From Cafeteria roenbergensis (taxonomy: Eukaryota > Sar > Bigyra > Bicosoecida > Cafeteriaceae): a stretch of DNA of 64,000 nucleotides. The position numbers and the translations under genes are program-made. Where the stretch lies: NCBI GenBank assembly GCA_008330645.1, contig VLTN01000074.1, positions 91,222 to 155,221 of the forward strand, read 5' to 3'. The notes beneath the pieces were generated by a model. The model made no database searches. It had not been told where the DNA came from and saw nothing but the letters and a program-made list of their open reading frames with translations. Shown piece after piece: positions 1 through 62,168 of the stretch. Position 1 is the stretch's first letter; every line of letters starts with the position of its first letter.

Positions 1-3000
1 GACCGCTGTCTCGCTTCGTGGCGTTGGCCCGATTCCCTTCGCAGCTTGTGAGTGTCTGTCAGGTGGCGTCTGTGTCCGGCTGGTTGGCGGTCGACGGTGT
101 GGGCGGGGGATGATTGAGCCGCGCATGCGGACGTCGATCTGCGGAGCTCGGCGTGGCTTGGGCGGGCCCGAATTGGCGCTGGTGTGGCATCCGTGCGACG
201 TGATCCGACCGCTGTCTCGCTTCGTGGCGTTGGCCCGATTCCCTTCGCAGCTTGTGAGTGTCTGTCAGGTGGCGTCTGTGTCCGACTGGTTGGCGGGCGA
301 CGGTGTCGGCGGGGGATGATTGTGCCGCGCATGCGGACGTCGATCAGTGGAGGTCGGCGTCGCATAGTCGGGCCCGAAGTGGCGCTGGTGTGGCATCCGT
401 GCGACGTGATCCGACCGCTGTCTCGCTTCGTGGCGGTGGCCCGATTCCCTTCGCAGCTTGTGAGTGTCTGTCAGGTGGCGTCTGTGTCCGGCTGGTTGGC
501 GGTCGACGGTGTCGGCGGGGGATGATTGTGCCGCACATGCGGGCGTCAATCTGCGGAGGTCGGCGTCGCATAGTCGGTTCCGAATTGGCGCTGGTGTGGC
601 ATCCGGTGCGACCTGATCCGACCGCTGTCTCGCTTCGTGGCGGTGGCCCGATTCCCTTCGCAGGAAGTGAGTGTCTGTCAGGTGGCGTCTGTGTCGGGCT
701 GGTTGGCGGCCGACGGTGTCGGCGGGGGATGATTGTGCCGCACATGCGGGCGTCAATCTGCGGAGGTCGGAGTCGCATAGGCGGGCCCGACGTGGCGCTG
801 GTGTGGCATCCGTGCGAGCTGGTCCAACCGTTGTCTCGCTTCGTGGCGGTGGCCCGATTGCCTTCGCAGGAAGTGAGTGTCTGTCAGGTGGCGTCTGTGT
901 CCGGCTGGTTGGCGGCCGACGGTGTGGGCGGGGGATGATTGAGCCGCGCATGCGGACGTCGATCTGCGGAGCTCGGCGTCGCATGGGCGGGCCCGAAGTG
1001 GCGCTGGTGTGGCATCCGTGCGACGAGATCCGACCGCTGTCTCGCTTCGTGGCGGTGGCCCGATTGCCTTCGCAGGAAGTGAGTGTCTGTCAGGTGGCGT
1101 CTGTGTCCGGCTGGTTGGCGGCCGACGGTGTCGGCGGGGGATGATTGTGCCGCACATGCGGGCGTCAATCTGCGGAGGTCGGAGTCGCATAGTCGGGCCC
1201 GACGTGGCGCTGGTGTGGCATCCGTGCGAGCTGGTCCGACCGTTGTCTCGCTTCGTGGCGGTGGCCCGATTGCCTTCGCAGGAAGTGAGTGTCTGTCAGG
1301 TGGCGTCTGTGCCCGGCAGGTTGGCGGCCGACGGTGTGGGCGGGGGATGATTGAGCCGCGCATGCGGACGTCGATCTGCGGAGCTCGGCGCGGCTTGGGC
1401 GGTCCCGAATTGGCGCTGGTGTGGCATCCGTGCGACGTGATCCGACTGCTGTCTCGCTACGTGGCGGTGGCCCGATTCCCTTCGCAGCTTGTGAGTGTCT
1501 GTCAGGTGGCGTCTGTGTCCGGCTGGTTGGCGGGCGACGGTGTGGGGGGGGGGGACGATTGTGCCGCGCATGCGGACGTCGATCAGTGGAGGTCGGCGCG
1601 GCTTGGGCGGTCCCGAATTGGCGCTGGTGTGGCATCCGTGCGACCTGATCCGACCACTGTCTCGCTTCGTGGCGGTGGCCCGATTCCCTTCGCAGGGTGT
1701 GAGTGTCTGTCAGGTGGCGTCTGTGTCCGGCTGGCAGGCGGGCGACGGTGTGGGCGGGGGATGATTGCGCCGCGCATGCGGCTGTCGCGCTGTGGAGGTC
1801 GGCGTGGCTTGGGCGGGCCCGAATTGGCGCTGGTGTGGCATCCGTGCGACCTGATCCGACCGCTGTATCGCTACGTCGCGTTGGCCCGATTCCCTTCGCA
1901 GCTTGTGAGTGTCTGTCAGGTGGCGTCTGTGTCCGACTGGTTGGCGGGCGACGGTGTCGGCGGGGGATGATTGTGCCGCGCATGCGGACGTCGATCAGTG
2001 GAGGTCGGCGTCGCATAGTCGGGCCCGAAGTGGCGCTGGGGTGGCATCCGGTGCAACCTGATCCGACTGCTGTCTCGCTTCGTGGCGGTGGCCCGATTCC
2101 CTTCGCAGAGTGTGAGTGTCTGTCAGGTGGAGTCTGTGTCCGACTGGTAGGCGGGTGCCGGGTCGGCTGGTTGGCGGGCGACGGTGTCGTCGGGGGACGA
2201 TTGTGCCGCACATGCGGACATCGATCAGTGGAGGTCGGCGTCGCAGAGGCGGTCCCGAATTGGCGCTGGTGTGGCATCCGTGCGACGTGATCCGACCGCT
2301 GTCTCGCTTCGTGGCGGTGGCCCGATTCCCTTCGCAGAGTGTGAGTGTCTGTCAGGTGGAGTCTGTGTCCGACTGGTAGGCGGGTGCCGGGTCGGCTGGT
2401 TGGCGGGCGACGGTGTCGTCGGGGGACGATTGTGCCGCACATGCGGACATCGATCAGTGGAGGTCGGCGTCTCATAGTCGGGCCCGAAGTGGCGCTGGTG
2501 TGGCATCCGTTGCAACCTGATCCGCCTGCTGTCTCGCTTCGTGGCGGTGGCCCGATTCCCTTGGCAGGAAGTGAGTGTCTGTCAGGTGGCGTCTGTGTCC
2601 GACTGGTTGGCGGGCGACGGTGTCGCCGCGGGATCACTGTGCCACACATGCGGACATCGATCAGTGGAGGTCGGCGTCGCATAGTCGGTTCCGAATTGGC
2701 GCTGGGGTGGCATCCGTTGCAACCTGATCCGACCGCTGTCTCGCTTCGTGGCGGTGGCCCGATTCCCTTCGCAGGAAGTGAGTGTCTGTCAGGTGGCGTC
2801 TGTGTTCGACTGGTTGGCGGTCGACGGTGTCGGCGGGGGATGATTGTGCCACACATGCGGACGTCGATCAGTGGAGGTCGGCGTGGCTTGGGCGGGCCCG
2901 AAGTGGCGCTGGTGTGGCATCCGTGCGACGTGATCCGACCGCTGTCTCTCTACGTCGCGTTGGCCCGATTCCCTTCGCAGCTTGTGAGTGTCTGTCAGAT

Positions 3001-6000
3001 GGCGTCTGTGTCCGGCTGGTTGGCGGTCGACGGTGTCGGCGGGGGATGATTGTGCCGCGCATGCGGACGTCGATCAGTGGAGGTCGGCGTCGCATTGTCG
3101 GGCCCGAAGTGGCGCTGGTGTGGCATCCGGTGCGACGTGATCCGACCGTTGTCTCGCTTCGTGGCGTTGGCCCGATTCCCTTCGCAGCTTGTGAGTGTCT
3201 GTCAGGTGGCGTCTGTGTCCGGCTGGTTGGCGGTCGACGGTGTCGGCGGGGGATGATTGTGCCGCGCATGCGGACGTCGATCAGTGGAGGTCGGCGTCGC
3301 AGAGGCGGTCCCGAATTGGCGCTGGTGTGGCATCCGTGCGACCTGATCCGACCGCTGTCTCGCTTCGTGGCGGTGGCCCGATTCCCTTCGCAGGGTGTGA
3401 GTGTCTGTCAGGTGGAGTCTGTGTCCGACTGGTAGGCGGGTGCCGGGTCGGCGGGGGATGATTGTGCCGCGCATGCGGACGTCGATCAGTGGAGGTCGGC
3501 GTCGCATAGTCGGGCCCAAATTGGCGCTGGGGTGGCATCCGGTGCAACCTGATCCGACTGCTGTCTCGCTTCGTGGCGGTGGCCCGATTCCCTTCGCAGC
3601 TTGTGAGTGTCTGTCAGGTGGCGTCTGTGTCGGGCTGGTTGGCGGTCGACGGTGCCGGCGGGGGATGATTGTGCCGCACATGCGGGCGTCAATCTGCGGA
3701 GGTCGGCGTCGCATAGTCGGTTCCGAATTGGCGCTGGTGTGGCATCCGGTGCGACGTGATCCGACCGTTGTCTCGCTTCGTGGCGTTGGCCCGATTCCCT
3801 TCGCAGCTTGTGAGTGTCTGTCAGGTGGCGTCTGTGTCCGGCTGGTTGGCGGTCGACGGTGTGGGCGGGGGATGATTGTGCCGCGCATGCGGACGTCGAT
3901 CAGTGGAGGTCGGCGTCGCATAGTCGGGCCCGAAGTGGCGCTGGGGTGGCATCCGGTGCAACCTGATCCGACCGCTGTCTCGCTTCGTGGCGGTGGCCCG
4001 ATTGCCTTCGCAGGAAGTGAGTGTCTGTCAGGTGGCGTCTGTGTCCGACTGGTAGGCGGTCGACGGTGTGGGCGGGGGATGATTGTGCCGCACATGCGGA
4101 CGTCGATCAGTGGAGGTCGGCGTCGCATAGGCGGGCCCGAAGTGGCGCTGGGGTGGCATCCGTGCGACGTGATCCGACCGCTGCCTCGCTACGTGGCGGT
4201 GGCCCGATTGCCTTCGCAGGCTGTGAGTGTCTGTCAGGTGGCGTCTGTGTCCGGCTGGTAGGCGGGCGACGGTGTCGGCGGGGGATGATTGTGCCGCACA
4301 TGCGGACGTCGATCAGTGGAGGTCGGCGTCGCATAGGCGGGCCCGAAGTGGCGCTGGTGTGGCATCCGTGCGACCTGATCCGACCACTGTCTCGCTTCGT
4401 GGCGGTGGCCCGATTGCCTTCGCAGTTTGTGAGTGTCTGTCAGGTGGCGTCTGTGTCCGGCTGGTAGGCGGTCGACGGTGTCGGCGGGGGATGATTGTGC
4501 CGCACATGCGGACGTCGATCAGTGGAGGTCGGCGTGGCTTGGGCGGGCCCGAAGTGGCGCTGGGGTGGCATCCGTGCGACGTGATCCGACCGCTGTCTCG
4601 CTTCGTGGCGTTGGCCCGATTCCCTTCGCAGGCTGTGAGTGTCTGTCAGGTGGCGTCTGTGTCCGGCTGGTCGGCGGGCGACGGTGTGGGCGGGGGATGA
4701 TTGTGCCGCACATGCGGACGTCGATCAGTGGAGGTCGGCGTCGCATAGGCGGGCCCGAAGTGGCGCTGGTGTGGCATCCGTGCGACCTGATCCGACCGCT
4801 GTCTCGCTTCGTGGCGGTGGCCCGATTCCCTTCGCAGGCTGTGAGTGTCTGTCAGGTGGCGTCTGTGTCCGGCTGGTAGGCGGTCGACGGTGTCGGCGGG
4901 GGATGATTGTGCCGCACATGCGGACGTCGATCAGTGGAGGTCGGCGTCGCATAGGCGGGCCCGAAGTGGCGCTGGGGTGGCATCCGTGCGACGTGATCCG
5001 ACCGCTGTCTCGCTTCGTGGCGGTCGCCCGATTGCCTTCGCAGGAAGTGAGTGTCTGTCAGGTGGCGTCTGTGTCCGGCTGGTAGGCGGTTGACGGTGTC
5101 GGCGGGGGATGATTGTGCCGCACACGCGGACGTCGATCAGTGGAGGTCGACATCGCAAAGGCGTGCCCGAAGTGGCGCTGGTGTGGCATCCGTGCGACGT
5201 GATCCGACCGCTGTCTCGCTTCGTGGCGGTGGCCCGATTGCCTTCGCAGGCCGTGAGTGTCTGTCAGGTGGCGTCTGTGTCCGGCTGGTCGGCGGTCGAC
5301 GGTGTCGGCGGGGGATGATTGTGCCGCACATGCGGACGTCGATCAGTGGAGGTCGGCGTCGCATAGTCGGGCCCGAAGTGGCGCTGGTGTGGCATCCGTG
5401 CGACGTGATCCGACCGCTGTCTCGCTTCGTGGCGGTGGCCCGATTCCCTTCGCAGGAAGTGAGTGTCTGTCAGGTGGCGTCTGTGTCCGGCTGGTTGGCG
5501 GTCGACGGTGTGGGCGGGGGATGATTGTGCCGCGCATGCGGACGTCGATCAGTGGAGGTCGACGTCGCATAGGCGGGCCCGATGTGGCGCTGGGGTGGCA
5601 TCCGTTCGACGAGATCCGACCGCTGTCTCTCATTGTGGCGGTGGCCCGATTGCCTTCGCAGTTTGTGAGTGTCTGTCAGGTGGCGTCTGTGTCCGGCTGG
5701 TAGGCGGTCGACGGTGTCGGCGGGGGATGATTGTGCCGCACATGCGGACGTCGATCAGTGGAGGTCGGCGTCGCATAGGCGGGCCCGATGTGGCGCTGGG
5801 GTGGCATCCGTGCGACGAGATCCGACCGCTGTCTCGCTTCGTGGCGGTGGCCCGATTGCCTTCGCAGGAAGTGAGTGTCTGTCAGGTGGCGTCTGTGTCC
5901 GGCTGGTAGGCGGTCGACGGTGTCGGCGGGGGATGATTGTGCCGCACATGCGGACGTCGATCAGTGGAGGTCGACATCGCAAAGGCGTGCCCGATGTGGC

Positions 6001-6432
6001 GCTGGTGTGGCATCCGTGCGACGTGATCCGACCGCTGTCTCGCTTCGTGGCGGTGGCCCGATTGCCTTCGCAGGCCGTGAGTGTCTGTCAGGTGGCGTCT
6101 GTGTCCGGCTGGTCGGCGGTCGACGGTGTCGGCGGGGGATGATTGTGCCGCACATGCGGACGTCGATCAGTGGAGGTCGGCGTCGCATAGGCGGGCCCGA
6201 AGTGGCGCTGGTGTGGCATCCGTGCGACGTGATCCGACCGCTGTCTCGCTTCGTGGCGGTGGCCCGATTGCCTTCGCAGGCCGTGAGTGTCTGTCAGGTG
6301 GCGTCTGTGTCCGGCTGGTCGGCGGTCGACGGTGTCGGCGGGGGATGATTGTGCCACACATGCGGACGTCGATCAGTGGAGGTCGGCGTCGCATGGGCGG
6401 GCCCGCAGTGGCGCTGGGGTGGCATCCGTGCG
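1..6432. repeat. 206-bp tandem satellite array, about 31 units
   Basis: The same segment recurs every 206 bp. From about 4,020 to 6,290 the spacing is exactly 206. In the left half some units are longer because of an insertion of about 22-24 bp (near 2,145, 2,376 and 3,433). The array is cut by the window's left edge and stops at about 6,432. Copies on the right are more alike than those on the left, and variants occur in linked blocks (for example 'cttgggcgg' against 'cgcatagtcgg'), which suggests gene conversion. Both strands are open over long stretches, but 206 is not a multiple of three and a stop recurs in every unit, so continuous coding is unlikely. Each unit holds a splice-like GCAG-NNN-GTGAGT core, described separately. 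Confidence 0.97.
45..6282 (+). other. 31 splice-site-flanked triplets (candidate 3-nt micro-exons) in the satellite
   Basis: In every one of 31 units the sequence reads TTCGCAG, then three bases, then GTGAGTGTCTG; in one unit (near 2,563) the first block is TTGGCAG. The first triplet is at 45-47 and the last at 6280-6282. I count GAA 10 times, CTT 9, GCT 3, GCC 3, GGT 2, AGT 2 and TTT 2, all sense codons. The flanks match the acceptor (GCAG) and donor (GTGAG) seen at every intron I could define by protein continuity in this window, and the 203-bp spacing falls within the 147-668 bp range of those introns. Whether the triplets are spliced into any RNA is inference. They may instead be a variable codon of a non-functional open frame. 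Confidence 0.5.
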
Positions 6433-6608
6433 ACACTTGTTGGAGGCGGTGTTGGCAGTATTCTGGTGATCGGCGGCAAGTGTTCCGTGTTTTGCGATGA
6501 GGCCGTGTTGACGCCTCCACTGGCTCCACGGTCACGTGCTCTGCCGTGGCCACATGCTGCTTCTGCATTTCGCGCCGCGATGCTTTCGTTGCTGTCATTC
6601 GCACGCAG

Positions 6609-7193
6609 TCCGGACACACGGCGCTCTCTCTGGCGGCCAAGAACAAACGCCGTGACATCGTCATTGCTCTGCTGCGCGCTGGGGCGAGCCTAAAGCGGAA
6701 GGCAGCTGTGAGCGAGCGGCACTGTCGTCGGCTTCCTTGCCACGCCTGCTCTCGGGTTGTTTGCAAACCTGGAATGCAGCCAAGAGAGTCAGCGTTCATG
6801 CCTTCCGCCATCTCCCTTTCCGTTCTGGCCACCTGACTTCCACCTATCATGCAGGCCGGCAAATCCGTCGAGAGGTGGATCAAGGACAGCTTCGGCGAAG
6901 ACGAGGCGTGGCGGCTGCTCGAACACGCTCTTCTGGCCCGTGCAACGGCGGCCGAGGCGGCCAAACTGGCACTTGAAGCCACGCTGGCGCGGGAGCGCGA
7001 ATCGGCCGCAGCTGCGCTTGAGACGGCCAAACTGGCACTTGAAGCCACGCTGGCGCGGGAGCGCGAATCGGCCGCGGCTGCACTTGAGACGGCCACTGCC
7101 GCCGCTGCTCGGGAGCGCGAATCGGCCGCCGCAACCCTGCGTCGGCTCACCGAACGCATCGCCGCCGTGGAGGCAACTGCGGACGCGATCTGA
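6609..7193 (+). CDS. 3' end of an ankyrin-repeat / coiled-coil protein gene (5' part missing or beyond the satellite)
   Basis: Two phase-0 exons are visible. Exon 6609-6707 follows an acceptor (ACGCAG) and encodes exactly 33 residues that make one ankyrin repeat: SGHTALSLAA near its start and IVIALLRAGA near its end. The donor GTGAGC is at 6708. The second exon, 6855-7193, follows ATGCAG and encodes about 112 residues, mostly an Ala/Glu/Arg-rich coiled coil built from a 22-residue repeat, ending at TGA 7191-7193. No upstream coding exon lies between the satellite's end and 6608, so the gene either lost its 5' part or continues leftward with the satellite inside its introns. An alternative is a short stand-alone coiled-coil protein starting at ATG 6849. 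Confidence 0.6.
6957..7088 (+). repeat. 66-bp tandem repeat inside the coiled coil
   Basis: Two near-identical 66-bp units (6957-7022 and 7023-7088) encode 22 residues each (core AKLALEATLAR followed by ERESAAAALE). A partial third copy of the ERESAAA part follows. Because the unit is in frame, length change only lengthens the helix. Confidence 0.9.
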
Positions 7194-7233
7194 CGCGTGC
7201 GGCTCACAGCCCTGCTTCATCCAGGAGCACTCA

Positions 7234-51595: not shown

Positions 51596-51621
51596 AATGG
51601 AAATGAATTTCCATTTCTTCA

Positions 51622-51642
51622 ATAACCGCCGACGGCGGTTAT
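51622..51642. repeat. Perfect inverted repeat at the element's left edge
   Basis: ATAACCGCCG, one base, CGGCGGTTAT: 10-bp arms with a 1-bp centre, only about 25 bp inside the composition break. A smaller one, TGGAAAT-GA-ATTTCCA, lies just outside it at about 51,598-51,613. These may be end structures recognised by the integrase. Confidence 0.7.
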
Positions 51643-51771
51643 ATCCCCTTACGGACACACCTAGGGGCTTTTATCTAACGGGTCATCCATCAAACGGGTT
51701 ATCCACCACAGCCTCCCCTTTTATGATTCCCCTTTATATATTGACCCATGACGACACCGAGGACACCCCAA

Positions 51772-51793
51772 GACACCATAAATTTTAGGTGTC
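51772..51793. repeat. Imperfect palindrome with GACACC/GGTGTC arms
   Basis: The sequence is GACACC, then AT-rich ATAAATTTTA, then GGTGTC. It is one of the GGACA-type motifs of the terminal region arranged as an inverted pair. Confidence 0.6.
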
Positions 51794-52261
51794 CCCACCC
51801 CATAAAATCATATATTGAAAAAATAAATTAATTTTGTGATGGTTTCCTTCTAAAAATCCCCGTCAAATTTTAAACCATCTAATATTTTATACCCCCTATA
51901 GACAAAAGGACACTGGGGACACTAAAAAATATAATATAATTTAATTTATATATATATATAGAAAAAGTTTTTAGGGGTGTCCTGTCCTGTCCGTCCTGTC
52001 CCCGCCCTGGTCTCCATCATGTGAGAGTGCGAAGCGATAATAAAAATTAAAGCTTCAGTTTTAATTTATCCTTTTTCAACACTGTACGGTTCTTAAAGTT
52101 ATGGCTCCACAAATCTTACCACAATAATTACAAATTTTAATTAAATCTCTAGGACAAAATTAAAAAATGGGTTAAAGAAAAAAAAACTATAGTATTATAC
52201 ATAAACTAATTTTAATTATATTTGATTATATAATTAAACTTATTTTAATAAACTTTCACAT

Positions 52262-52801
52262 TTAAGCATTTTCAAGAGCTTCAACACGTGCAACCAATGC
52301 CGCATTTTGTGCGGTTAATTCTTGAACTGCTTTTATAAGTGGTGCTATAAATTCAGTGTATCTTAGAGAATAATCAAAACCTTCACCTTCAATGAGTGGT
52401 GTTTTTTGAATTGTTCCAGTTCCGTCAGATTGAGGAATAAAGTTGGGGTCTGGTATCATTTTTTGGGATTTAATGACGGTTGCGTTTCCTGTAAGGTCTG
52501 AATCTCCTAAATTGTTAAATACAGTTTCAACTTCTTGAGCTATTAAACCATAATGAACACGATCACTTGTATTTTCTTTAAATTTATACTCAACAGGGCG
52601 GAGTGTGTTTATAAAATCAAGACCTTTTGTTAAATCATTGACATCTTTCTTTTTATTTAAATCTGATGTTTGAATGGTACCATTTGCAGAATACACATCT
52701 TTCCATCTGAAGGTGTTATATCCTAAATCAATGGTGTTGTCTGTCTCTGGTCTGACAACTGGTGTTAATGCATCCAAAACCATAATTGAATTCAAATACA
52801 T
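52262..52801 (-). CDS. C-terminal part of a fibre-like protein: S74 intramolecular chaperone domain
   Basis: This frame carries a peptidase S74 (endosialidase-type) chaperone domain: DLGYNTFRWKDVYSANGTIQ, then TSDLNKKKDV, LRPVEYKF and YGLIAQEVE. The family helps trimeric fibres fold and then cuts itself off. The Ser-Lys dyad is kept (SD-xxx-K pattern at Ser46 and Lys51 of this frame). The end is a short coiled coil (AVQELTAQNAALVARVEAL). It is probably not an independent gene: the ATG at 52799-52801 is internal, no TCTA promoter precedes it, and the frame continues leftward in sense from the 52830-53660 frame across a CCCC run. Together with the two upstream frames it makes one gene of about 580 codons. 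Confidence 0.85.
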   Translation of the reverse strand: MYLNSIMVLDALTPVVRPETDNTIDLGYNTFRWKDVYSANGTIQTSDLNKKKDVNDLTKGLDFINTLRPVEYKFKENTSDRVHYGLIAQEVETVFNNLGDSDLTGNATVIKSQKMIPDPNFIPQSDGTGTIQKTPLIEGEGFDYSLRYTEFIAPLIKAVQELTAQNAALVARVEALENA

Positions 52802-52829
52802 TGCATTATCTCCATCACAATTTAACCAA

Positions 52830-53660
52830 TTAATGTTGGTTGGGGTGAGTGGGGTCTACAGGGTTTAAAGAATTAATAGAAAAACTGTCACCTGTTCGTT
52901 GGTCCACTTTCATTTGCCATATTTGCTTGTTTGCGTTGGTTCTGAAATATCCTGTGGAACCATTTAAATAACCGTTCCAGCTTAAACTGCTCCATCCTGG
53001 ACGAGTCCCCCCTGCATCTGTGCCTGCTTCCATAAACAACTGACCACTCTCACTAGGACTGGCTGCAGGACTTCTGAAACGTGCACATAAATGTGCAGTT
53101 GGTTGATTTGATGATCCCACTGACAATTGACCAGATGCAGCATTATTTACAACCAGAGAATGGTCACCAACATATAAAGTATCAGTTTTAACTTCACCAA
53201 CCACCTCAAGTTCTGCACCTGGGTCAGATGTCATAATACCAACTCTGTTGCCTCTAACTCTCATAGTTTCAGAAAAAACAGAACCAGGAACAACATCACC
53301 GTTTTGAACAGAAAAAATAATATTACCCTTAACACCAGATGTAGGATCACCTGCCATAGAAATTTGTGCAGTTTTCCCGCCATCTAATCCATCATCTCCA
53401 TCATTAAAAATAATATTATGTGGGGTTTTTCGTTGTGCTTCAGTAGATGGAGTAGGGGATTTGAACAAAACTAGATTATTCATATTACTAACCAATTCAT
53501 TTTCTCCAACTTTAACACTGTATGTGGTATTAAAATCGTTATTTCTTTGATTACCAGCTTCATTACCACTATACATATAAATGCTTCTATCACTATCATC
53601 TTGACCACTTAAAAGTAAGCCAGGGCTATAAGCTATAGACCCGTTAAAGTTGGATTCCAT
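52830..53660 (-). CDS. Middle part of the fibre-like protein
   Basis: This 276-codon frame is rich in Gly, Asn and Ser with beta-type sequence (SIYMYSGNEAGNQ, RVRGNRVGIMTSDPGAELEV, LYVGDHSLVVNNAASGQLSV). Such VGIGT/NP-like stretches are common just before S74 chaperone domains in trimeric fibre shafts. It lacks its own promoter. At its 5' end a six-A run separates it from the N-terminal frame (53686-54012), and at its 3' end a CCCC run separates it from the S74 frame. One base less at each place would give one continuous protein. Host attachment is the likely role, by analogy. Confidence 0.75.
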   Translation of the reverse strand: MESNFNGSIAYSPGLLLSGQDDSDRSIYMYSGNEAGNQRNNDFNTTYSVKVGENELVSNMNNLVLFKSPTPSTEAQRKTPHNIIFNDGDDGLDGGKTAQISMAGDPTSGVKGNIIFSVQNGDVVPGSVFSETMRVRGNRVGIMTSDPGAELEVVGEVKTDTLYVGDHSLVVNNAASGQLSVGSSNQPTAHLCARFRSPAASPSESGQLFMEAGTDAGGTRPGWSSLSWNGYLNGSTGYFRTNANKQIWQMKVDQRTGDSFSINSLNPVDPTHPNQH

Positions 53661-53685
53661 ATAAATTGGGTCATTATTTGGAAAT

Positions 53686-54012
53686 CTAATTCCACTTTTT
53701 TGTATTACTTCCAGCGATTGGTTCGCCAGTTATAATAACACTTTTAGTTGTAAGTGGAGTGGTTAAAGATAAGGTGTTAGCTTGAATTTCTCCAATATTG
53801 AGCATATCATCACCATTGCCATCATTACCAGCTGCTAAAACTTGTGAAAGGGTCCCACTATGTGAATCAATTTGAGAATCTACATAAGCTTTATTAGGGC
53901 AGTCGTAATCATCAACAGGAGGGGCCACGTTAGTAATTTTATTTTTTCCAGCATCTAAGCCAGCACAGGTTAATTTATAACTATTACCATAAAGTAAATT
54001 TGAAATAGACAT
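53686..54012 (-). CDS. N-terminal part of the fibre-like protein
   Basis: The start ATG at 54010-54012 has a proper TCTAAGT promoter 12 bp upstream. The frame encodes 108 residues including KITNVAPPVDDYDCPNKAYVD, a pattern seen in phage tail-fibre repeats (NKAYVD), and then leaves the frame at a six-A run around 53,702. The gene is the first transcribed leftward beyond the major capsid gene, so it sits at the end of the structural cluster. Confidence 0.75.
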   Translation of the reverse strand: MSISNLLYGNSYKLTCAGLDAGKNKITNVAPPVDDYDCPNKAYVDSQIDSHSGTLSQVLAAGNDGNGDDMLNIGEIQANTLSLTTPLTTKSVIITGEPIAGSNTKKWN

Positions 54013-54023
54013 TATATATAATA

Positions 54024-54030
54024 ACTTAGA
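54024..54030 (-). promoter_or_regulatory. TCTA late promoter, fibre gene
   Basis: On the minus strand it reads TCTAAGT followed by TATTATATATAATG; the motif is 12 bp from the ATG. Confidence 0.85.
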
Positions 54031-54135
54031 TATTATTTTTTAAGTTATTAAATATATTTGTTAAATGTTTTTAGAGGTTTCTTAAGTCGTGAAGTTGTTT
54101 ATCTGATAATTTTTTACCGCCTTTTTTTCCTGATC

Positions 54136-55890
54136 CTAGTAAAACAATTTCTCCACCTTTCTTTTTCTAGTGGTTGTTTTTTTTTTACCATAACCATAAA
54201 CGGAGGCAATGTTTCCCATCATTGTACCATCTCCCGCATAATCTTTTAATGGTCCCGCATTTCTTAAAAGTTTAGTCACCGTTTTAGTCACAGGATGAGC
54301 TGCCATATGGTTAAAATTAGTCATAACATCACCCATAAAGGACCCGCCCATAACCCGCATTAATTTGTTATTGTCATCAGTAAGTTTTAGGGGGCTTCGT
54401 AATAGTTGGTCGGGAGTGTAAAGGGTTAAATCATCCATAAAGGTACCATCTTCAAAGCTGTAGGTGAGATTATCTCTAATTGAAAACACTTCTAATTTAT
54501 AACGAGCACCAGTACCCGCAGCTTCAGGGGTGACAAATGTTGCTTGTACCTGCATATTAATGGACTTATTAGCATTAGCCATAACATTATAATCTTTTAA
54601 TCCCAGATCGGAAGGACGGAAGAAAATTACAGAACCAGCACCAAATATAGCTTCTTTAAATTTGTTACCAGCAGCCACAGCGGGATCTGCCACAGTCAAG
54701 CCATTAGCCAGAGCACCACTAAAGCATGAAAATCTTTTATTATATCCATTAGATGAAGATAATTCGTACAGTTGTTGTTGTTCAAGTTCTCTAAAAATAC
54801 CAACATCAGAATCCACCTTAATTTCTAATCCAATAATTCCAGCAAGTTGATCAGGGGCAAACTTTTTTGTTGGTGTTTCTTGTGAAACCATAACAGCAAA
54901 CATTGAAGGGACATTATTCATTGCCATACTATGAGTTGTTAATATGTGTTTATTTCGTTCACCAGGGATACCGTAAGGATCCTTTGTATTGAGGCACATC
55001 GAACTTATATTACCTTCTAATGAAATTAACGGGGTGTTATATATTATAGTTTTAGGAATGTCACCAATTTCAAGAGGGGCTACCCAGTTTTGAACAAGCA
55101 TATTAATTTTAAATCCGGTTATATCCACTTCAAAATCTGCTTTACCCGCCACAAGTTTAACATCATCCGCAATACCAATCATATTTTCAGGTTTAAATTG
55201 TCCATCTAATATGACTTTAAATGTGTTCAGGTTTCTAAAAGGTACTGGGTCTTTAATATTTTTATATTGTGTGGGATTGGCTACAAGTGCTTCATCTACT
55301 ACAAAATCAATTTTTACGGATGTGCTACCTGCTGCCCGTGGGTGGATATAATAGGCATAATTACAACCTAAACCGCGAGACATTCGGCTATCGGTAGATT
55401 CTGTACCTTGTCTATAAGGGTTATTCATAGAAACGGCTTTTATTTTATTATATTCATCTACATCAGAGCAGGGAGAAAGCAAAGCAAGTTCTAGAGGATC
55501 CGCATTATATTGATGAAGTTTAATTAATTGTGCGGGGTAACTGGTAAAAGTTTTACCATTCATATTAATTACTGCAACAGGTATACTTCTATTAACTGGA
55601 AAAGATTTCAGGCCTATTTGATCTTTTAAAGATGAATCAGCTAAAATATTTTTAATTTCAGCAGTAAAACTTACTCTTAAACGTGGAGCACCTCCTGTTA
55701 AATTTCCAAGAGGTTGATTAAAAGTTATTTGACCTATACCATTCTTAGGTGCATCTGATACGGGTTGAATTGTTTGAAATGTTGAGTATGGAATGCCTAT
55801 TCTAGAAGCAATTTTAACATTTTTAGAAGTGGGCCAATTATAAGCATATGGAGCTTGTAAAACAGTATCGAGTTCTGGGGGTGTATTCAT
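54136..55890 (-). CDS. MCP: Major capsid protein (double jelly-roll type)
   Basis: The 584-residue frame is close to the mavirus major capsid length (about 600) and occupies the expected place next to penton, protease and ATPase. It has the composition of a double jelly-roll capsid protein, with GAPRLRVSFTAEIKN near residue 70 and a basic C-terminal tail (GKKKTTTRKRK). It starts at ATG 55888-55890, 9 bp from a TCTAAGT promoter. The stop at 54136 is suspicious: one A more in the short A runs at 54157-54166 would give an extra Gly/Lys-rich tail of about 25 residues ending at 54071. The tail looks coding (GGEIVLLGSGKKGGKKL). Identification is by position and general resemblance; a structure search would settle the fold. 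Confidence 0.88.
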   Translation of the reverse strand: MNTPPELDTVLQAPYAYNWPTSKNVKIASRIGIPYSTFQTIQPVSDAPKNGIGQITFNQPLGNLTGGAPRLRVSFTAEIKNILADSSLKDQIGLKSFPVNRSIPVAVINMNGKTFTSYPAQLIKLHQYNADPLELALLSPCSDVDEYNKIKAVSMNNPYRQGTESTDSRMSRGLGCNYAYYIHPRAAGSTSVKIDFVVDEALVANPTQYKNIKDPVPFRNLNTFKVILDGQFKPENMIGIADDVKLVAGKADFEVDITGFKINMLVQNWVAPLEIGDIPKTIIYNTPLISLEGNISSMCLNTKDPYGIPGERNKHILTTHSMAMNNVPSMFAVMVSQETPTKKFAPDQLAGIIGLEIKVDSDVGIFRELEQQQLYELSSSNGYNKRFSCFSGALANGLTVADPAVAAGNKFKEAIFGAGSVIFFRPSDLGLKDYNVMANANKSINMQVQATFVTPEAAGTGARYKLEVFSIRDNLTYSFEDGTFMDDLTLYTPDQLLRSPLKLTDDNNKLMRVMGGSFMGDVMTNFNHMAAHPVTKTVTKLLRNAGPLKDYAGDGTMMGNIASVYGYGKKKTTTRKRKVEKLFY

Positions 55891-55898
55891 ATATATTA

Positions 55899-55905
55899 AC
55901 TTAGA
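55899..55905 (-). promoter_or_regulatory. TCTA late promoter, major capsid gene
   Basis: On the minus strand TATCTAAGTTAATATATATG ends at the major capsid ATG. Confidence 0.88.
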
Positions 55906-56115
55906 TAATATTTTTTTAATTATAAATTATTTTAAACTTACCTTAATAATTTTAAATAATTTAGAGACTTTTTAAAGATCAAAAAAACTAGACTTTAATA
56001 TAATTAATCTATTGATTCAAATAAAAGCGTAAGTTGTATTACTGTTTGAGGAAGAAGAGTTAAAGGGTGTTTTTCATTATCATAATCGTATATGGTAAAG
56101 GATAAATTAAAACGG

Positions 56116-56916
56116 TTAAAAATTAGTTTGTAAAATATTATGGTATTTATTAGAGGAATTTTCAACCCTAAATAAAATGCTGTTATAATCTTGATTGTTT
56201 TGTTGTAAATATTTATAATTAGTAAGGAAAACCCCCGTGTTATCTGATATAGTGGTGTTTTTAGATATTGAAGGGAGTAATTCATAAGATACGGGGAGGT
56301 CGTTAGATTCTATAACAATATGCGATATAGGGGTTAAAAATTCTAAAGTGGAAGCATCTTGTGTTTCTACATCTTCATTTAATATAACTAATGAATACTC
56401 TTCGTCTATGTCGTCAAATTCAAAAGAGTTAAAGTCTACTCTCATGTCATCATTAAACATAATAAAATGACCGTTTCTAAAATTTTCAGTCGTGGTGATT
56501 TCAAATTTTTTACTATGTTTATTAAAACTAAAAACGGGTATGTCTTCTTCTCCTATGATACCGCCACATAATCCAGCTAAAGTTTCATTAATGGCGGTAC
56601 CTACATCAACATAATCGTACATGTACCCGTCTTCATCTACAAAGGTACTAAAATCAACCTCACGTACTCCCATAATTTCATCGGTGGAACGGTTAAAAAT
56701 TCCTACTTGATAGTCATGTCCCGCGGGTTTAAATAATGGAAGTCTTATTTTATGGAGATGGAACTCTTCAACAATTAAGAGATAATTTTTATCAGGGTCT
56801 AAAATTGTAGAAGAACGAAAAATATCAACACTAACGGGTCTTTTATAAGAGCCCCGCGGTCCAGCTAATTGTTTATTACTCTTGATAGTTTCATTAAGCC
56901 AAATATACTGTTTCAT
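56116..56916 (-). CDS. Minor capsid (penton) protein, C-terminus shifted into another frame
   Basis: The 266-residue frame lies directly after the protease gene and before the major capsid gene, as in mavirus-type elements, and starts with a TCTAAGT promoter. Motifs include NYLLIVEEFHLHKIRLPLF and PISHIVIES, typical of single jelly-roll penton proteins. The frame stops after HNILQTNF at a TTTTT run. A second frame overlapping from 56,137 down to 56,004 continues with NRFNLSFTIYDYDNEKHPL, the usual C-terminal signature of virophage pentons (RLNFSIYDEDG type). One T fewer joins them, so the true gene is probably 56004-56916, about 305 residues. Confidence 0.85.
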   Translation of the reverse strand: MKQYIWLNETIKSNKQLAGPRGSYKRPVSVDIFRSSTILDPDKNYLLIVEEFHLHKIRLPLFKPAGHDYQVGIFNRSTDEIMGVREVDFSTFVDEDGYMYDYVDVGTAINETLAGLCGGIIGEEDIPVFSFNKHSKKFEITTTENFRNGHFIMFNDDMRVDFNSFEFDDIDEEYSLVILNEDVETQDASTLEFLTPISHIVIESNDLPVSYELLPSISKNTTISDNTGVFLTNYKYLQQNNQDYNSILFRVENSSNKYHNILQTNF

Positions 56917-56924
56917 ATATATAA

Positions 56925-56931
56925 ACTTAGA
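56925..56931 (-). promoter_or_regulatory. TCTA late promoter, penton gene
   Basis: On the minus strand TTCTAAGTTTATATATATG ends at the penton ATG. Confidence 0.87.
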
Positions 56932-56957
56932 ATATATTATTTTAAGTTAATAAATAC

Positions 56958-57527
56958 TTAATGGAAAGTTTGAACAACCACCTCATCAGGTGAAATATTT
57001 TTCAATTTACTTAAAGATTTAATCACTTGAGCAAACTCGTCATTTGTTAAATTTTTTAAAGCACACCTGGTTAAACACCACCGCCCACATGTGGCACTGT
57101 TATTTGTTAGAGATTGTAATTTATGGTGTGAATAATCAACATCGTACCCACTTTCTAACAGTAAATTTATTAAGCTGTTTTCTTCTTCTTTATATAGGTC
57201 TTTTCTTTGTGTTCCGCTGTACCTTTTTTGGTCTACATCTGGTCTGCCTCCGTAAGAATCAAAAAAATAAATTGTACCTTCTTTTTTACCTAGTATTAAA
57301 GCACAATAATGCCCAAATAAAAACTCGCCTTGATGATTAGGATAAAAAATTATCAATTTGTTATCATTTCTAAATAATCCATTTATATTTTTACAATTAA
57401 TAATGTCGTCATAATCTATAACATTAATTCCGGTTTCATTTGGTAATGTTGAGTGCCATAAATCCCGTAATTCTTGAGGACTTAGAGCTGTTAATAACAA
57501 TTTTTTAATATCTGCTTTCTTTAACAT
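56958..57527 (-). CDS. PRO: Adenain/Ulp1-like cysteine protease (capsid maturation)
   Basis: The 189-residue protein has the C5/C48 clan order: His73 in FGHYCALIL, Asp90 in IYFFDSYGG, Gln138 in HKLQSLTNNS and Cys147 in ATCGRWCL. Such proteases process capsid and accessory proteins in mavirus, polintons and adenoviruses. The gene is intact. A TAGA (TCTA on the minus strand) lies at 57539-57542, with TTTATATATG at the start. It is placed between penton and ATPase. Confidence 0.93.
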   Translation of the reverse strand: MLKKADIKKLLLTALSPQELRDLWHSTLPNETGINVIDYDDIINCKNINGLFRNDNKLIIFYPNHQGEFLFGHYCALILGKKEGTIYFFDSYGGRPDVDQKRYSGTQRKDLYKEEENSLINLLLESGYDVDYSHHKLQSLTNNSATCGRWCLTRCALKNLTNDEFAQVIKSLSKLKNISPDEVVVQTFH

Positions 57528-57538
57528 ATATAAAACAA

Positions 57539-57542
57539 TAGA
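57539..57542 (-). promoter_or_regulatory. TCTA late promoter, protease gene
   Basis: On the minus strand TTCTATTGTTTTATATATG ends at the protease ATG. The AAGT extension is replaced by TTGT. Confidence 0.8.
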
Positions 57543-57560
57543 ATAATTTTTTTATATATC

Positions 57561-58493
57561 TTATTTTATAGTGTCCGTATTAACCACCGCTTTTTGTGAA
57601 ATGGTTAAATGATTGTCTATATTATAACAAACCCACCGCGACTTTAATAATAATTTATCTACCAGGTCCCTTTGTCTTTTTTTTAATCCTAAATAATTTT
57701 TAAAGAGTCCTTCCCGTTGATAAGAGGTTGATTTTTTAAAAATAACATAATTAGTTGTTTCCTGTTTGATAAGACCGAAGGATGGCCCTCCTTGTGTCTT
57801 ATGGTTGGCTATTATCATATTACATTTATAATGCCTTCCTTGTGTTAATAAATGATCCCGTAAAACTTCAATTAATTTGACATCTTTATTTTTTTCGTAA
57901 TCATCAAAAAATATAACGGAATCTTTAAAAATTTCACCTATATCCTCATTACTAAACCTTAATTGATAACCTGTTTTTTTTGGTCCTTTTTTAACCTTTA
58001 AATCATTAATTCTTAATTCTTCTTTTAACACTTCTTCAGGTTCTAGAAATTTTTTAAGATGTTTGAATTTAATTTTTTCTTTTTCATATAATTTAATTTT
58101 TTCTTCTTCATCCTCATTTTCATAAGGAATCACAAAATCATTAATATCTAAATATTTAATTTTACCAAAACGGCGGTCTGGTTTGTCTGTTATGGCAAAA
58201 AAATGCTTAATTCCTGCTCTGGTGTATTTATCTATTAATTGTACCACAAAGGTAGATTTACCCGAACCACTTTGACCGCTAATAAAATATCTATCACTGT
58301 CTATTTCTTTATCTTGAATACTTGGCGGAATAACTTCTAAAAGATCCTTACCATTTGTATGAAAATAATCCGTACCTTCGTCATCGTCCATTTCATAACT
58401 CGGATCAAAATAAATTAATTTACTTTTACTGTACCGTCCTAAAGTTTTATTCTCCGCAATTGGATAACCTTTTTTTAACTCATTAATACTCAT
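57561..58493 (-). CDS. ATPase: FtsK/HerA-type genome-packaging ATPase
   Basis: This 310-residue P-loop ATPase of the adenovirus IVa2/poxvirus A32/HerA group is thought to pump DNA into the capsid. Walker A is ISGQSGSGKST (residues 73-81), Walker B is SVIFFDDYE (193-200) and the downstream motif is CNMIIANHKTQGG (near 225-236). The reading frame is intact and the start has a TCTA at 58509-58512. It lies upstream of protease, penton and major capsid on the same strand, each gene with its own promoter. Confidence 0.94.
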   Translation of the reverse strand: MSINELKKGYPIAENKTLGRYSKSKLIYFDPSYEMDDDEGTDYFHTNGKDLLEVIPPSIQDKEIDSDRYFISGQSGSGKSTFVVQLIDKYTRAGIKHFFAITDKPDRRFGKIKYLDINDFVIPYENEDEEEKIKLYEKEKIKFKHLKKFLEPEEVLKEELRINDLKVKKGPKKTGYQLRFSNEDIGEIFKDSVIFFDDYEKNKDVKLIEVLRDHLLTQGRHYKCNMIIANHKTQGGPSFGLIKQETTNYVIFKKSTSYQREGLFKNYLGLKKRQRDLVDKLLLKSRWVCYNIDNHLTISQKAVVNTDTIK

Positions 58494-58688
58494 TTATATA
58501 TAAAAAGATAGATTTTATTTTTAAATTATAATGATTTAGGTTTTACAGCCGTTAAAATATAAATTGAAAGAGGTAATTTAAAAAAAGCTTTAAAAAAAAA
58601 TAGTCTATGTGTATTTTTTTAAAATTCTGCACCTATTAAAAAAAATTAAGAAAAAACATTAAAATTTTACATGCATTAAAATATATAT
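58494..58688. other. AT-rich spacer upstream of the ATPase gene
   Basis: This spacer holds the ATPase promoter and the 3' flank of the nucleotidyltransferase-like gene. Nothing else is recognised. Confidence 0.5.
58509..58512 (-). promoter_or_regulatory. TCTA late promoter, ATPase gene
   Basis: On the minus strand ATCTATCTTTTTATATATAA leads into the ATPase ATG. Confidence 0.8.
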
Positions 58689-59504
58689 TTAATTATATTT
58701 GGATAGATCCACCAAAGAAATAATTTTATCATTTAATTTTTTATTTAAGTTATTTATCATTTTAGGGATATCAGATAAATATTTTAATTTCCCGTTACTT
58801 AATCTTTCATCATATGCCGCCAATTTAATAAAAATATCTTCTTTTAAATTTGATAAAACAAACTTTTTAATTTTACTATTCATTTTAGAGTCTTGAACAC
58901 TTTTAAGCCGTGAGATGGTCAAATACCCAAAGCCCACAAATGAGTTGTTTAAAATATCATCAAATTTATTTTCAATTTTATTTAATCTTTTTAATGCTTT
59001 AACATAATTCTTTTTTTTAACATATAATTTAAACTCATCATAAAATAATTTTTTAAAATCTTCATCCGCTAAATTTGTTGATGTTGAAAAATCATAGATA
59101 ATAGTCAAATCCTCTAAATATTCCCCAGTAAATAAAAATAAATCTAATTTTAACCATTTCATAGAGGTTTTATTAAGTAAATTAAATACTTTTGTATAAG
59201 ATTTTAAAACTTTTAGAGCATCGTCTATATTTCTAATCGGTTTATCTCCTATTTTAAGCTTGGAAAATTCTGTAATCGGGTCTTTTTTTATCATTTTTAA
59301 AATATTATATACCGCTTCCATTAATAATTTAATCATATTTTCCGTAAAATCTATTTTTTGATATAAATCTATATCACTCGCCCATAAACTCAAAGGATAA
59401 GACCCATTAAGACGCATTGTTTTACCATGTTCAAAGTTAAGCTGGTTTAAAATTGATCGGTTAGTCTTGTTAAACTTTTTAATATTCCGTTGTGTGAGCT
59501 TCAT
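58689..59504 (-). CDS. Nucleotidyltransferase-fold protein, function unknown
   Basis: The preferred start is the ATG at 59502-59504 (271 residues), because the AT-rich promoter-like stretch ends there; an ATG at 59534 in frame is also possible. The protein has the polymerase-beta-type pattern: Gly34-Ser35 in RLNGSYPLSL, Asp44 and Asp46 in WASDIDLY, and a third acidic strand KLDLFLF (Asp121). The rest is Lys-rich helix. This could be a nucleotidyl-transferring enzyme (for example of a terminal-transferase or tRNA/RNA-modifying type), but the motif alone does not fix the substrate. The usual TCTA is replaced by CCTA at 59,515-59,519. It is divergent from the lipase-domain gene, with 75 bp between starts. 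Confidence 0.65.
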   Translation of the reverse strand: MKLTQRNIKKFNKTNRSILNQLNFEHGKTMRLNGSYPLSLWASDIDLYQKIDFTENMIKLLMEAVYNILKMIKKDPITEFSKLKIGDKPIRNIDDALKVLKSYTKVFNLLNKTSMKWLKLDLFLFTGEYLEDLTIIYDFSTSTNLADEDFKKLFYDEFKLYVKKKNYVKALKRLNKIENKFDDILNNSFVGFGYLTISRLKSVQDSKMNSKIKKFVLSNLKEDIFIKLAAYDERLSNGKLKYLSDIPKMINNLNKKLNDKIISLVDLSKYN

Positions 59505-59562
59505 ATAATATAATTTAGGTTTTTTGTTTATCAAAAAAAATATTAATCTAAAAAATTTAATA

Positions 59563-59566
59563 TCTA
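59563..59566 (+). promoter_or_regulatory. TCTA late promoter, lipase-domain gene
   Basis: TATCTAACTT followed by ATTATATATATG ends at the ATG 59580. A second TCTA lies at 59547-59550. The short divergent gap also serves the nucleotidyltransferase-like gene. Confidence 0.82.
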
Positions 59567-59579
59567 ACTTATTATATAT

Positions 59580-59852
59580 ATGGACAACTCACTGAGAAAC
59601 TTGTTATTAAACATAGCGATCAAACGTGGCGAACAATACAAAGCCAGGGCGGAAGCTTCAAACAATGACGAATTATTTAAAAGAGGGGTTGATGAATCTT
59701 TGCGAAAAGAGAAACTAAAACAGGAGGTAGTGCTTGAAAAATTTGAACGGGACGAATATAAACCTTTAGATATGATTTTAAGAGAATCACGAAAAGGTCA
59801 AGAAGTAAGAGGTTTAATTTATTCATCTTTTAATGAATTTAAAAAAACCTAA
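59580..59852 (+). CDS. N-terminal part of the lipase-domain gene
   Basis: The ATG at 59580 follows a TCTAACTTATTATATATATG promoter. It encodes 90 residues, helical and charged (RKEKLKQEVVLEKFERDEY). The frame ends in FNEFKKT at a seven-A run. One A fewer leads straight into the 59833-60144 frame (KKPNPSFEILRG), so this is probably the beginning of one long gene reaching 61738. Confidence 0.7.
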   Translation: MDNSLRNLLLNIAIKRGEQYKARAEASNNDELFKRGVDESLRKEKLKQEVVLEKFERDEYKPLDMILRESRKGQEVRGLIYSSFNEFKKT

Positions 59853-60144
59853 TCCAAGCTTTGAAATTTTAAGAGGCCAAATTAAGCGGCTGAATGATAT
59901 AGTTTTAACTGAAGATTTACCAGCAGCAACAGAAGAAGCAATAAAAAATTATATGACAGGATTTAAAGAAAAATTGATCGTCCCTTTTGGAACTTCTCCA
60001 CAATTCTCCGACAAGCATCAAGAACGATTAATTGGATATGTATCCGATTTACTTAAAATAATAGGTAAAAAAAGATGCACCAAACTCACAATTAGACGAA
60101 GAAGTCCAGGCAATGGAGAGAAAAACAAAAGATCGATTAATTGA
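59833..60144 (+). CDS. Second part of the lipase-domain gene
   Basis: The helical sequence (LRGQIKRLNDIVLTEDLPAAT, LIGYVSDLLKII) has no promoter of its own. It loses frame at a seven-A run at about 60,066-60,072. The alternative frame continues with DAPNSQLDEEVQAMERK into the 60113-61738 frame. Confidence 0.65.
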   Translation: MNLKKPNPSFEILRGQIKRLNDIVLTEDLPAATEEAIKNYMTGFKEKLIVPFGTSPQFSDKHQERLIGYVSDLLKIIGKKRCTKLTIRRRSPGNGEKNKRSIN

Positions 60145-60314
60145 AATTTTCACAAGAGATGGAAATGGAAAGCTTGGAATTTCCGTACCCAAAAAACTAA
60201 TTTTATTAGGTGACTTAGGGTTTGATACATCAAAATTTTCCAATTCATCACCATATGAAGACATAAATAAATATGCTATAAAACAAATTCAAGGCATACC
60301 CGTAAAATCTGCTA

Positions 60315-60375
<61 letters not shown>

Positions 60376-61738: not shown

Positions 61739-61766
61739 AAATTGATTTAAGGATAAAAAAATATTA

Positions 61767-61770
61767 TCTA
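61767..61770 (+). promoter_or_regulatory. TCTA late promoter, gene at 61787
   Basis: TATCTAAGGCATTATATATA then ATG: same spacing as the capsid-gene promoters. Confidence 0.84.
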
Positions 61771-61786
61771 AGGCATTATATATATA

Positions 61787-62164
61787 ATGGAAATATCAAG
61801 TGCAAGTGCAACAACTTCAGGAATTACAATGGCTCTAAATATCCTAACTCCTCTAGCGGTTCATACTTATCGGTCATGTATCCGCCCAAGAATTAGAAAG
61901 GTACAAAACATAAGAAAACAGGTTCTTTTACTCCCTCCAAAAGGTGGTAAGGGTTTTTTATATAACAAACTAAAAAACCAAAAGCAGTACATGGTTATAG
62001 ATGTAGACGAGTATTTAACAAGCCTGGTCACTGAAGAGGAATTAAAAAGACTTAAGAATGCCAAGAAAAACGACTCATTTTTTGAACTAGATCTTTTATA
62101 TTCAAGTTGTGCGGACAAAGTAAAAACCTCTTCTTATACATGGGCCAGCTCTTTTTTCACATGA
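61787..62164 (+). CDS. Unknown element protein, first part
   Basis: The ATG at 61787 has a TCTA promoter (61767-61770). The protein begins with a mildly hydrophobic segment (GITMALNILTPLAVHTY), then a basic patch and YMVIDVDEYLTSLVTEEEL. I do not recognise a family. The frame ends after WASSFFT at a TTTTTT run. One T fewer continues as SFSHDAVCIAAPDSEFF into the 62169-62369 frame, so a single gene of about 193 codons (61787-62369) is likely. Confidence 0.65.
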   Translation: MEISSASATTSGITMALNILTPLAVHTYRSCIRPRIRKVQNIRKQVLLLPPKGGKGFLYNKLKNQKQYMVIDVDEYLTSLVTEEELKRLKNAKKNDSFFELDLLYSSCADKVKTSSYTWASSFFT

Positions 62165-62168
62165 TGCG

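What the first reader, a model, noticed from the sequence alone, without database searches (positions are those of the whole stretch)
1..6432. Satellite whose every unit carries a consensus acceptor, one variable codon and a consensus donor
All 31 units read GCAG, exactly three bases, GTGAGT. The 12 donors I could place by protein continuity here all read GTGAG and the 13 acceptors all read GCAG, so both flanks fit this genome's splice signals. The triplet takes seven forms (GAA, CTT, GCT, GCC, GGT, AGT, TTT), all sense codons, several differing at two or three bases, while the flanking words are almost constant. The 203-bp spacing is a normal intron length here. The array may thus be a string of one-codon micro-exons, giving a cassette in which copy number and triplet type set a short peptide, or a recursive-splicing ladder. 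Splicing of such short exons is inference. Other sites in the unit also vary, so the triplet is not the only variable block.
Basis: partly seen in the sequence, partly recalled or inferred. Interest (0 to 1): 0.85.

Follow-up and report, generated by a model that had tools for sequence, protein, structure and literature searches.

The report
One-codon splice-flanked repeat array
Inside one intron of an ankyrin gene of a marine flagellate lie 32 tandem copies of an intron-like unit, each separated by a fast-changing three-base "exon", which may add a variable string of single amino acids to a protein, although no RNA evidence was available to show it.

Summary
All 31 units in the window, plus one just upstream, read GCAG-NNN-GTGAGT. 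The triplet is the most variable three-base window of the 206-bp unit, differing about 20 times more per site than the rest among the most similar units; the 23 columns around it are the most constant such stretch. The genome is very likely Cafeteria burkhardae, probably strain BVI. The array was found at one locus, in sense, inside a 7,349-bp phase-0 intron between two ankyrin exons. Unit length and core sites fit the genome's introns, though their wider context is below average. Two of 20 sampled pieces carry ankyrin exon-intron arrays with 99-bp exons, so this looks like a one-codon version. Proteins on short unnamed contigs show the same immediate flanks, some with other triplets. Against coding use: 29 of 32 triplets are minority codons, their last base is unlike real exon ends, direct splicing already gives a canonical ankyrin repeat, and no RNA could be examined. 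Best reading: splice-competent units with a diversified codon (0.37). Inclusion in mRNA is inference.

The parts
1..6434 (+). Tandem array, 31 of the 32 units (the first lies upstream, from about C74:91054); unit 206 bp = 3-base putative micro-exon + about 203-bp intron-like segment GTGAGT...CGCAG (GGCAG in one)
45..47 (+). First triplet (CTT) inside the window, between GCAG (41-44) and GTGAGT (48-53); recurs every 206-230 bases
6280..6282 (+). Last triplet (GCC, unit 32)
6283..6608 (+). Last intron-like step: donor GTGAGT of unit 32 to the CACGCAG acceptor of the next ankyrin exon (326 bp); array homology ends near 6434
6609..6707 (+). Ankyrin exon 3 (99 bp, phase 0 on both sides), SGHTALSLAAKNKRRDIVIALLRAGASLKRKAA, donor GTGAGC; placed by ankyrin homology and the public model, not recovered by my own gene model
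   Evidence: FNF31_07159 reads the same from SGHTAL; missed
6708..6854 (+). Intron 3 of the host gene (147 bp)
6855..7193 (+). Exon 4, C-terminal Ala/Glu/Arg-rich tail with stop
1..6608 (+). Window part of the 7,349-bp intron 2 (C74:90481-97829) that holds the array; exons 1 (C74:89883-90176) and 2 (C74:90379-90480) lie upstream of the window

Best explanation
The array is a tandem amplification of an intron-plus-micro-exon unit at a module boundary of an ankyrin gene, a one-codon version of the tandem ankyrin exon-intron arrays that this genome makes elsewhere. Shown: 32 units in sense orientation in one phase-0 intron; consensus acceptor and donor cores exactly three bases apart in every unit; ordinary intron length; most constant flanks and most variable triplet coincide; the boundary lies where ankyrin exons join. 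Inferred: the spliceosome handles the units as ordinary introns of about 203 bp and removes them one by one (intron definition, possibly recursively), so some mRNAs retain between 0 and 32 extra codons at the tip of an ankyrin beta-hairpin. Unequal exchange homogenises the introns and sets copy number, while selection keeps the splice sites fixed and diversifies the retained codon.
For: 32 of 32 units keep GCAG-N3-GTGAGT. Array in the 7,349-bp phase-0 intron 2 of a 4-exon gene with exons of 294, 102, 99 and 339 bp, all multiples of 3. Triplet rank 1 of 206 windows; per-site difference 0.47 against 0.024 elsewhere in the 29 pairs of units with 6 or fewer other differences, best window not touching it 0.23. 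The 9 columns before and 14 after the triplet hold 1 minor allele, lowest of 206 placements, median 10. Predicted introns: median 201 bp, CGCAG 84 and GTGAG 98 of 151; without the two array-bearing pieces median 188, CGCAG 62 and GTGAG 77 of 126. Array acceptor at the 50th percentile of 94 confident introns, but at the 25th of 73, and in the top 8.7% of all CAGs, without those pieces. In window 1-6432 GTGAG occurs 31 times forward, 0 reverse. L023 and L026 hold ankyrin arrays of 99-bp phase-0 exons with consensus sites. Outside records: P0003 reads E then A, P0004 E at the triplet; P0005 shows the same left array edge with first triplet NCC (TTT here) and second GCT or GTT (CTT here), adjoining codons unchanged (decoded by hand from the reverse frame).
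Against: No RNA data could be examined. Third base is G or C in 3 of 32 triplets, against 0.816 in sampled coding sequence; six of seven types are minority codons, only GCC is common. Last base before the donor is T 19, A 10, C 3, G 0 of 32, against G 67, C 50, T 18, A 16 of 151 predicted exons (G 51 of 126 without the array pieces). Direct exon 2-exon 3 joining gives the canonical ankyrin spacing; 32 added residues lower Ank_2 from 48.2 to 36.8 bits, though one residue does not (48.4). Donor context beyond GTGAG (+6 to +9) is at the 7th percentile of 94 real donors, 1st of 73 without the array pieces. CGCAGNNNGTGAG is not enriched elsewhere: 229 hits less the 31 of the array = 198, against 194 in the control. 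In sister array L023 the exon is no more diverse than the intron (0.028, 0.033). The public model FNF31_07159 uses no micro-exon. My own gene model called the array non-coding.
Confidence: 0.37

Rival explanations
1. Intronic minisatellite relic. A tandem expansion happened to include a former exon-intron junction; mature mRNA joins exon 2 to exon 3 (or the gene is dead), and the triplet is hypervariable through an unknown mutational process.
For: Canonical direct junction; minority codons, unexon-like last base and poor donor context; arrays of exon-intron units occur in 2 of 20 sampled pieces; the gene model in another strain omits the triplets.
Against: Does not explain why exactly the three bases between the two consensus sites differ about 20 times more than the rest while their flanks are the most constant part and no length change occurs. 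A direct 7.3-kb intron would lie far beyond the sampled lengths (95th percentile 618 bp; the counts were cut at 1,500 bp and the model disfavours long introns).
Confidence: 0.35
2. Splicing decoy or ladder without coding role: units recruit spliceosomes and are removed stepwise or act as pseudo-exons that tune expression of the ankyrin gene; triplets are by-products.
For: Each step would have an ordinary intron length: 579 bp, then 31 steps of 203-227, then 326; splice flanks constant.
Against: Every used step leaves three bases in the product, unlike zero-nucleotide ratchet points; gives no reason for triplet diversity.
Confidence: 0.15
3. DNA-level site: the constant block with a variable three-base centre is the target of a recombinase or nuclease, and the spacer varies by repair.
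For: Constant flanks of 9 and 19 columns (below 0.07 diversity) around a variable centre.
Against: The flanks are this genome's splice consensus, in sense, in a gene intron; no other near match in the assembly beyond 11 hits at 3 mismatches, control 10; no enzyme is proposed.
Confidence: 0.07
4. Conventional coding repeat read through the array on either strand.
For: GC-rich, stop-poor frames up to 594 aa on the minus strand.
Against: 206 is not a multiple of 3; no third-position excess of variation in the triplet's frame; the codon model calls the array non-coding on both strands, though it also missed exon 3; no Pfam match at E 0.001 for the two array frames tested, 594 aa minus and 286 aa plus.
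Confidence: 0.03

Closest known systems
Tandem 90-bp-exon LRR genes of Tetrahymena (PMC6564038: abstract and passages seen)
   Same: Repeat-protein genes with tandem identical-length exon-intron units, uniform intron phase, expansion ascribed to unequal crossing over
   Different: There the exon is 90 bp, the length of one repeat, in phase 2, in thousands of genes; here the exon is 3 bp, one locus, phase 0
LRR-exon arrays of brown algal ROCO genes (PMC11378527: passages seen)
   Same: Stramenopile (recalled); one module per exon (72 bp); diversifying selection on exon residues; alternative splicing among array exons
   Different: Exon codes a whole LRR, phase 2; here a single codon, and splicing is unproven
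Dual-specific splice sites in tandem repeats such as human UBC (PMC10809524: passages seen)
   Same: Tandem repeat in which every unit carries acceptor and donor function, so units can be removed in whole numbers
   Different: There AGGT is one shared site and the unit codes ubiquitin; here acceptor and donor are separate, three bases apart, and the unit is otherwise intron-like
Single very short exons (1 nt in Arabidopsis APC11, PMC4674806 passages; 3 nt in Drosophila homothorax, PMC7392893 abstract and outline)
   Same: Exons of 1 to 3 bases can be spliced
   Different: Isolated exons, not a tandem array of variable ones
Schistosoma micro-exon genes (start of abstract of PMC10526429 in a search listing only)
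   Same: Genes built of many short exons, 3-81 bp
   Different: Not tandem copies of one unit (recalled, from no call)
Prdm9 zinc-finger coding minisatellite (PMC3890296: passages seen)
   Same: Minisatellite with concerted evolution and change ascribed to positive selection at recognition positions
   Different: Whole unit is coding; no intron between units (recalled)

Membership tests
Tandem exon-intron arrays of repeat-protein genes | Tandem units each holding consensus acceptor and donor, uniform phase | tested here: met
   32 of 32 units GCAG-N3-GTGAGT, phase-0 host intron
Tandem exon-intron arrays of repeat-protein genes | Each exon codes a whole structural repeat | tested here: not met
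   Exon would be 3 bases; sister arrays L023 and L026 meet it with 99-bp ankyrin exons
Tandem exon-intron arrays of repeat-protein genes | Exons shown in mRNA | not testable with these tools
   No transcript data held
Zero-nucleotide recursive splicing (ratchet points) | Acceptor directly joined to donor, AG|GT | tested here: not met
   Three bases intervene in 32 of 32
Recursive splicing through an RS-exon | Stepwise removal with observed intermediates | not testable with these tools
   No RNA data
Micro-exons | Very short exon flanked by functional splice sites and present in mRNA | tested here: inconclusive
   Core sites match the genome consensus; wider acceptor context 25th percentile and donor context 1st percentile of 73 introns; inclusion not testable; no genome-wide excess of CGCAG-N3-GTGAG
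Introner elements | Similar introns at many unrelated loci | tested here: not met
   Unit found at one locus (whose first look passes on best candidates only; by pattern); against 156 sampled introns hits at E up to 1 only, the five rows shown 12-24 bases long
Coding minisatellite with selected codons (Prdm9-like) | Diversity concentrated at specific codons in an otherwise homogenised unit | tested here: met
   Triplet rank 1 of 206 windows; that selection is the cause was not tested
Coding minisatellite with selected codons (Prdm9-like) | Unit is translated | not testable with these tools
   No RNA or peptide data; codon use argues against

The most novel reading that the evidence does not exclude
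A codon-by-codon exon array: 32 exons of one codon each, separated by near-identical introns, spliced in variable number into the finger tip of an ankyrin protein, so that copy number and triplet type write a short hypervariable peptide under diversifying selection.
Probability: 0.26. Interest if true: 0.92.

Novelty: new variant of a known kind. Interest (0 to 1): 0.6.

Why it matters
If the triplets are spliced in, the locus would set a lower limit for how finely introns can divide a coding sequence and would be a way of making variable peptides by copying introns. It would also give a natural test bed for splicing of 3-base exons and for recursive splicing at regular spacing. Even if the triplets are not used, a block of exactly three bases that differs about 20 times more than the rest of a homogenised unit, framed by invariant splice consensus, needs an explanation. 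Long-read RNA from a culturable flagellate would decide it.

Tried and rejected
Other loci with the unit: none in the assembly by similarity (best candidates only); by a 22-place pattern with up to 3 mismatches, 43 hits, of which 32 are the array and 11 others all have 3 mismatches, control 10. Genome-wide excess of 3-base exons between consensus sites: none. Search for two sites 170-200 bases apart: 40 rows, 29 in the array, 9 in a 41-bp repeat on C63, one each on C1 and C40. Introner hypothesis: rejected. RNA structure of one unit: folding energy equals shuffles, z 0.02; no Rfam family reaches its gathering score in the window. tRNA: none. Amphipathic order of the would-be peptide: 32% of shuffles as good. 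Linkage of the triplet to the preceding or following intron: some columns associated on both sides; hypervariability holds either way. The 19-column constant run after the donor is not unusual in length by column shuffling. Third-position periodicity: none. Exact array pattern in viral contigs: none (records very near this genome may be left out there). My gene model did not recover exon 3 and called a short doubtful exon after exon 2.

Papers: the listings (titles and starts of abstracts) and the empty one search showed no report of a tandem array of one-codon exons. Beyond the listings I saw only what is named under Closest known systems, plus passages of PMC6972860 and PMC8547959.

Full report
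What was checked. All 31 units in the window carry GCAG, exactly three bases, then GTGAGT. One further unit lies upstream, giving 32. The triplets are GAA 10, CTT 9, TTT 3, GCT 3, GCC 3, GGT 2, AGT 2. The array was found at one place in the 36.3-Mb assembly.

Source. The best protein match to the host gene is a Cafeteria roenbergensis hypothetical protein, FNF31_07159. Its best match in this assembly is only 79-89% identical and lies at this very locus, so it comes from another strain. Assembly size and contig number (36,303,456 bp in 167 contigs) are close to strain CrBVI (36,327,047 bp in 170 contigs, PMC6972860 Table 3). PMC8547959, citing those assemblies, names the strains C. burkhardae. 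Species and strain are inferences.

Surroundings. The array sits in sense orientation in one intron of a four-exon gene. Exons are 294, 102, 99 and 339 bp; introns 202, 7,349 and 147 bp; all phase 0. Joined, the exons match ankyrin repeats (Ank_2, 48.2 bits). FNF31_07159 begins MGGFVVALVWHP, which resembles the last array unit, and then reads SGHTAL as exon 3 does, so the right array edge exists in another strain; that model is a prediction. The left edge of the array coincides with the first acceptor: likeness to the unit's 3' end stops 6 bases before the first triplet. Taken as steps, the intron would be 579 bp, 31 steps of 203-227 bp and 326 bp.

Variation. In an alignment of 31 complete units, the triplet columns are first, second and fifth of 206 in diversity and the first three in inferred changes (a tree of recombining repeats is only a rough guide). 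Among the 29 pairs of units with six or fewer other differences, the triplet differs at 47% of sites and the rest at 2.4%; 20 of these 29 pairs differ in the triplet, 7 of them at all three bases. The best window not touching it reaches 23%. Its flanks (9 and 14 columns) hold one minor allele, the lowest of 206 placements, median 10; with only 4 and 6 columns, 7 of 206 placements are as constant.

Splice signals. I trained a codon model and a two-strand gene model on about 281 kb: bases 100,001-110,000 of contigs C1 to C20 (a fixed rule, not random) plus 81 kb around the locus. Without site preference, GTGAG and GCAG were the commonest ends (26 and 60 of 205; many of these calls are false). 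With a preference, 151 introns gave median 201 bp, GTGAG 98, GCAG 137, CGCAG 84. Two of the pieces hold arrays of near-identical introns; without them 126 introns gave median 188 bp (quartiles 120 and 355), GTGAG 77, GCAG 113, CGCAG 62. Against 94 confident introns the array acceptor stood at the median; against 73 without the array pieces it stands at the 25th percentile and in the top 8.7% of all CAGs, and the donor's +6 to +9 bases at the 1st percentile. So the cores are consensus and the wider context is mediocre to poor. In the unit scanned, GTGAG occurs only at the junction, and none occurs on the reverse strand of window 1-6432.

Kin. Two of the 20 pieces hold ankyrin arrays: L023 with 15 full introns of about 296 bp and 14 complete 99-bp exons between them, all open and 33 aa long; L026 with four introns of 183-184 bp and three 99-bp exons between them. 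By eye, their exons end at the same ankyrin register as exons 2 and 3 here. Exon and intron diversity in L023 are alike (0.028 and 0.033), so hypervariable exon bases are not a general by-product of such arrays.

Outside records. Three short records without names encode the same array: P0003 (674-bp contig; E and A at the triplet), P0004 (489 bp; E), both read in the triplet's own frame, and P0005 (825 bp), read in reverse, which spans the left edge. In P0005 the first triplet must be NCC (TTT here) and the second GCT or GTT (CTT here), if the adjoining codons are as here. All five keep three bases and the same adjoining residues; P0005 has changes a few codons away. Conversion from another unit could explain the differences, so this is not proof of change in place.

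Against coding use. 29 of 32 triplets are minority codons (3 to 24% of their amino acid; GCC, 35%, is the exception), and the third base is G or C in 3 of 32 against 0.816. The last base is never G, whereas 67 of 151 predicted exons end in G. Direct joining of exons 2 and 3 gives canonical spacing; one added residue is neutral for the profile, 32 are not. CGCAGNNNGTGAG shows no excess elsewhere (198 against 194 in the control).

Judgement. Invariant splice consensus around a fixed-length, fast-changing codon, in phase, at a module boundary, is best explained by units that the spliceosome recognises and a codon that is at least sometimes retained. The codon, exon-end and donor-context evidence, and the absence of RNA, hold confidence at 0.37 (lowered from 0.40). 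A neutral relic with an unexplained mutational hotspot is about as likely (0.35).

Relation to known systems. Tandem exon-intron arrays in repeat-protein genes are known in Tetrahymena and brown algae, isolated 1-3-base exons in plants and flies, and unitwise splicing of tandem repeats in UBC. An array of one-codon exons was not seen in the listings; one search returned nothing. I file it as a new variant of a known kind.

Noticed in passing
window 51600-64000: AT-rich stretch (24-38% GC in the 1-kb bins from 52001 on) at the contig end with genes resembling a major capsid protein (PF22031), a packaging ATPase (weak terminase-like PHROG) and a lipase-like protein; fits an endogenous mavirus-like virophage (EMALE), cut by the contig end. 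Observed only.
   Followed up: partly
L023 (C12:100001-110000, minus strand, about 1280-7210 of the reverse complement): Tandem ankyrin exon-intron array, 99-bp exons and about 296-bp introns, most copies 94-99.7% alike, one 83-86%; one of two such arrays in 20 sampled 10-kb pieces.
   Followed up: partly
L026 (C15:100001-110000, minus strand): Tandem ankyrin exon-intron array, 99-bp exons and 183-184-bp introns.
   Followed up: partly
window 6386-6434 and protein P0001: Public model FNF31_07159 starts in a sequence like the last array unit and lacks exons 1 and 2; probably a misannotation caused by the array.
   Followed up: partly
window 2106-2564: Two neighbouring units of 229 and 230 bp share a 23-bp internal insertion, probably a recent duplication.
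   Followed up: no
C63:143308-143852: Another tandem repeat (41-bp steps) that also carries GCAG-N3-GTGAG; the nine rows shown start with the same triplet, and the spacing is not intron-like.
   Followed up: no
window 1165-2949, minus strand: 594-aa stop-free frame across the array on the minus strand without a Pfam match at E 0.001; probably a product of GC-rich composition.
   Followed up: partly
L009 4475-4600: Perfect 6-base repeat, 21 copies (consensus GCGAGG).
   Followed up: no
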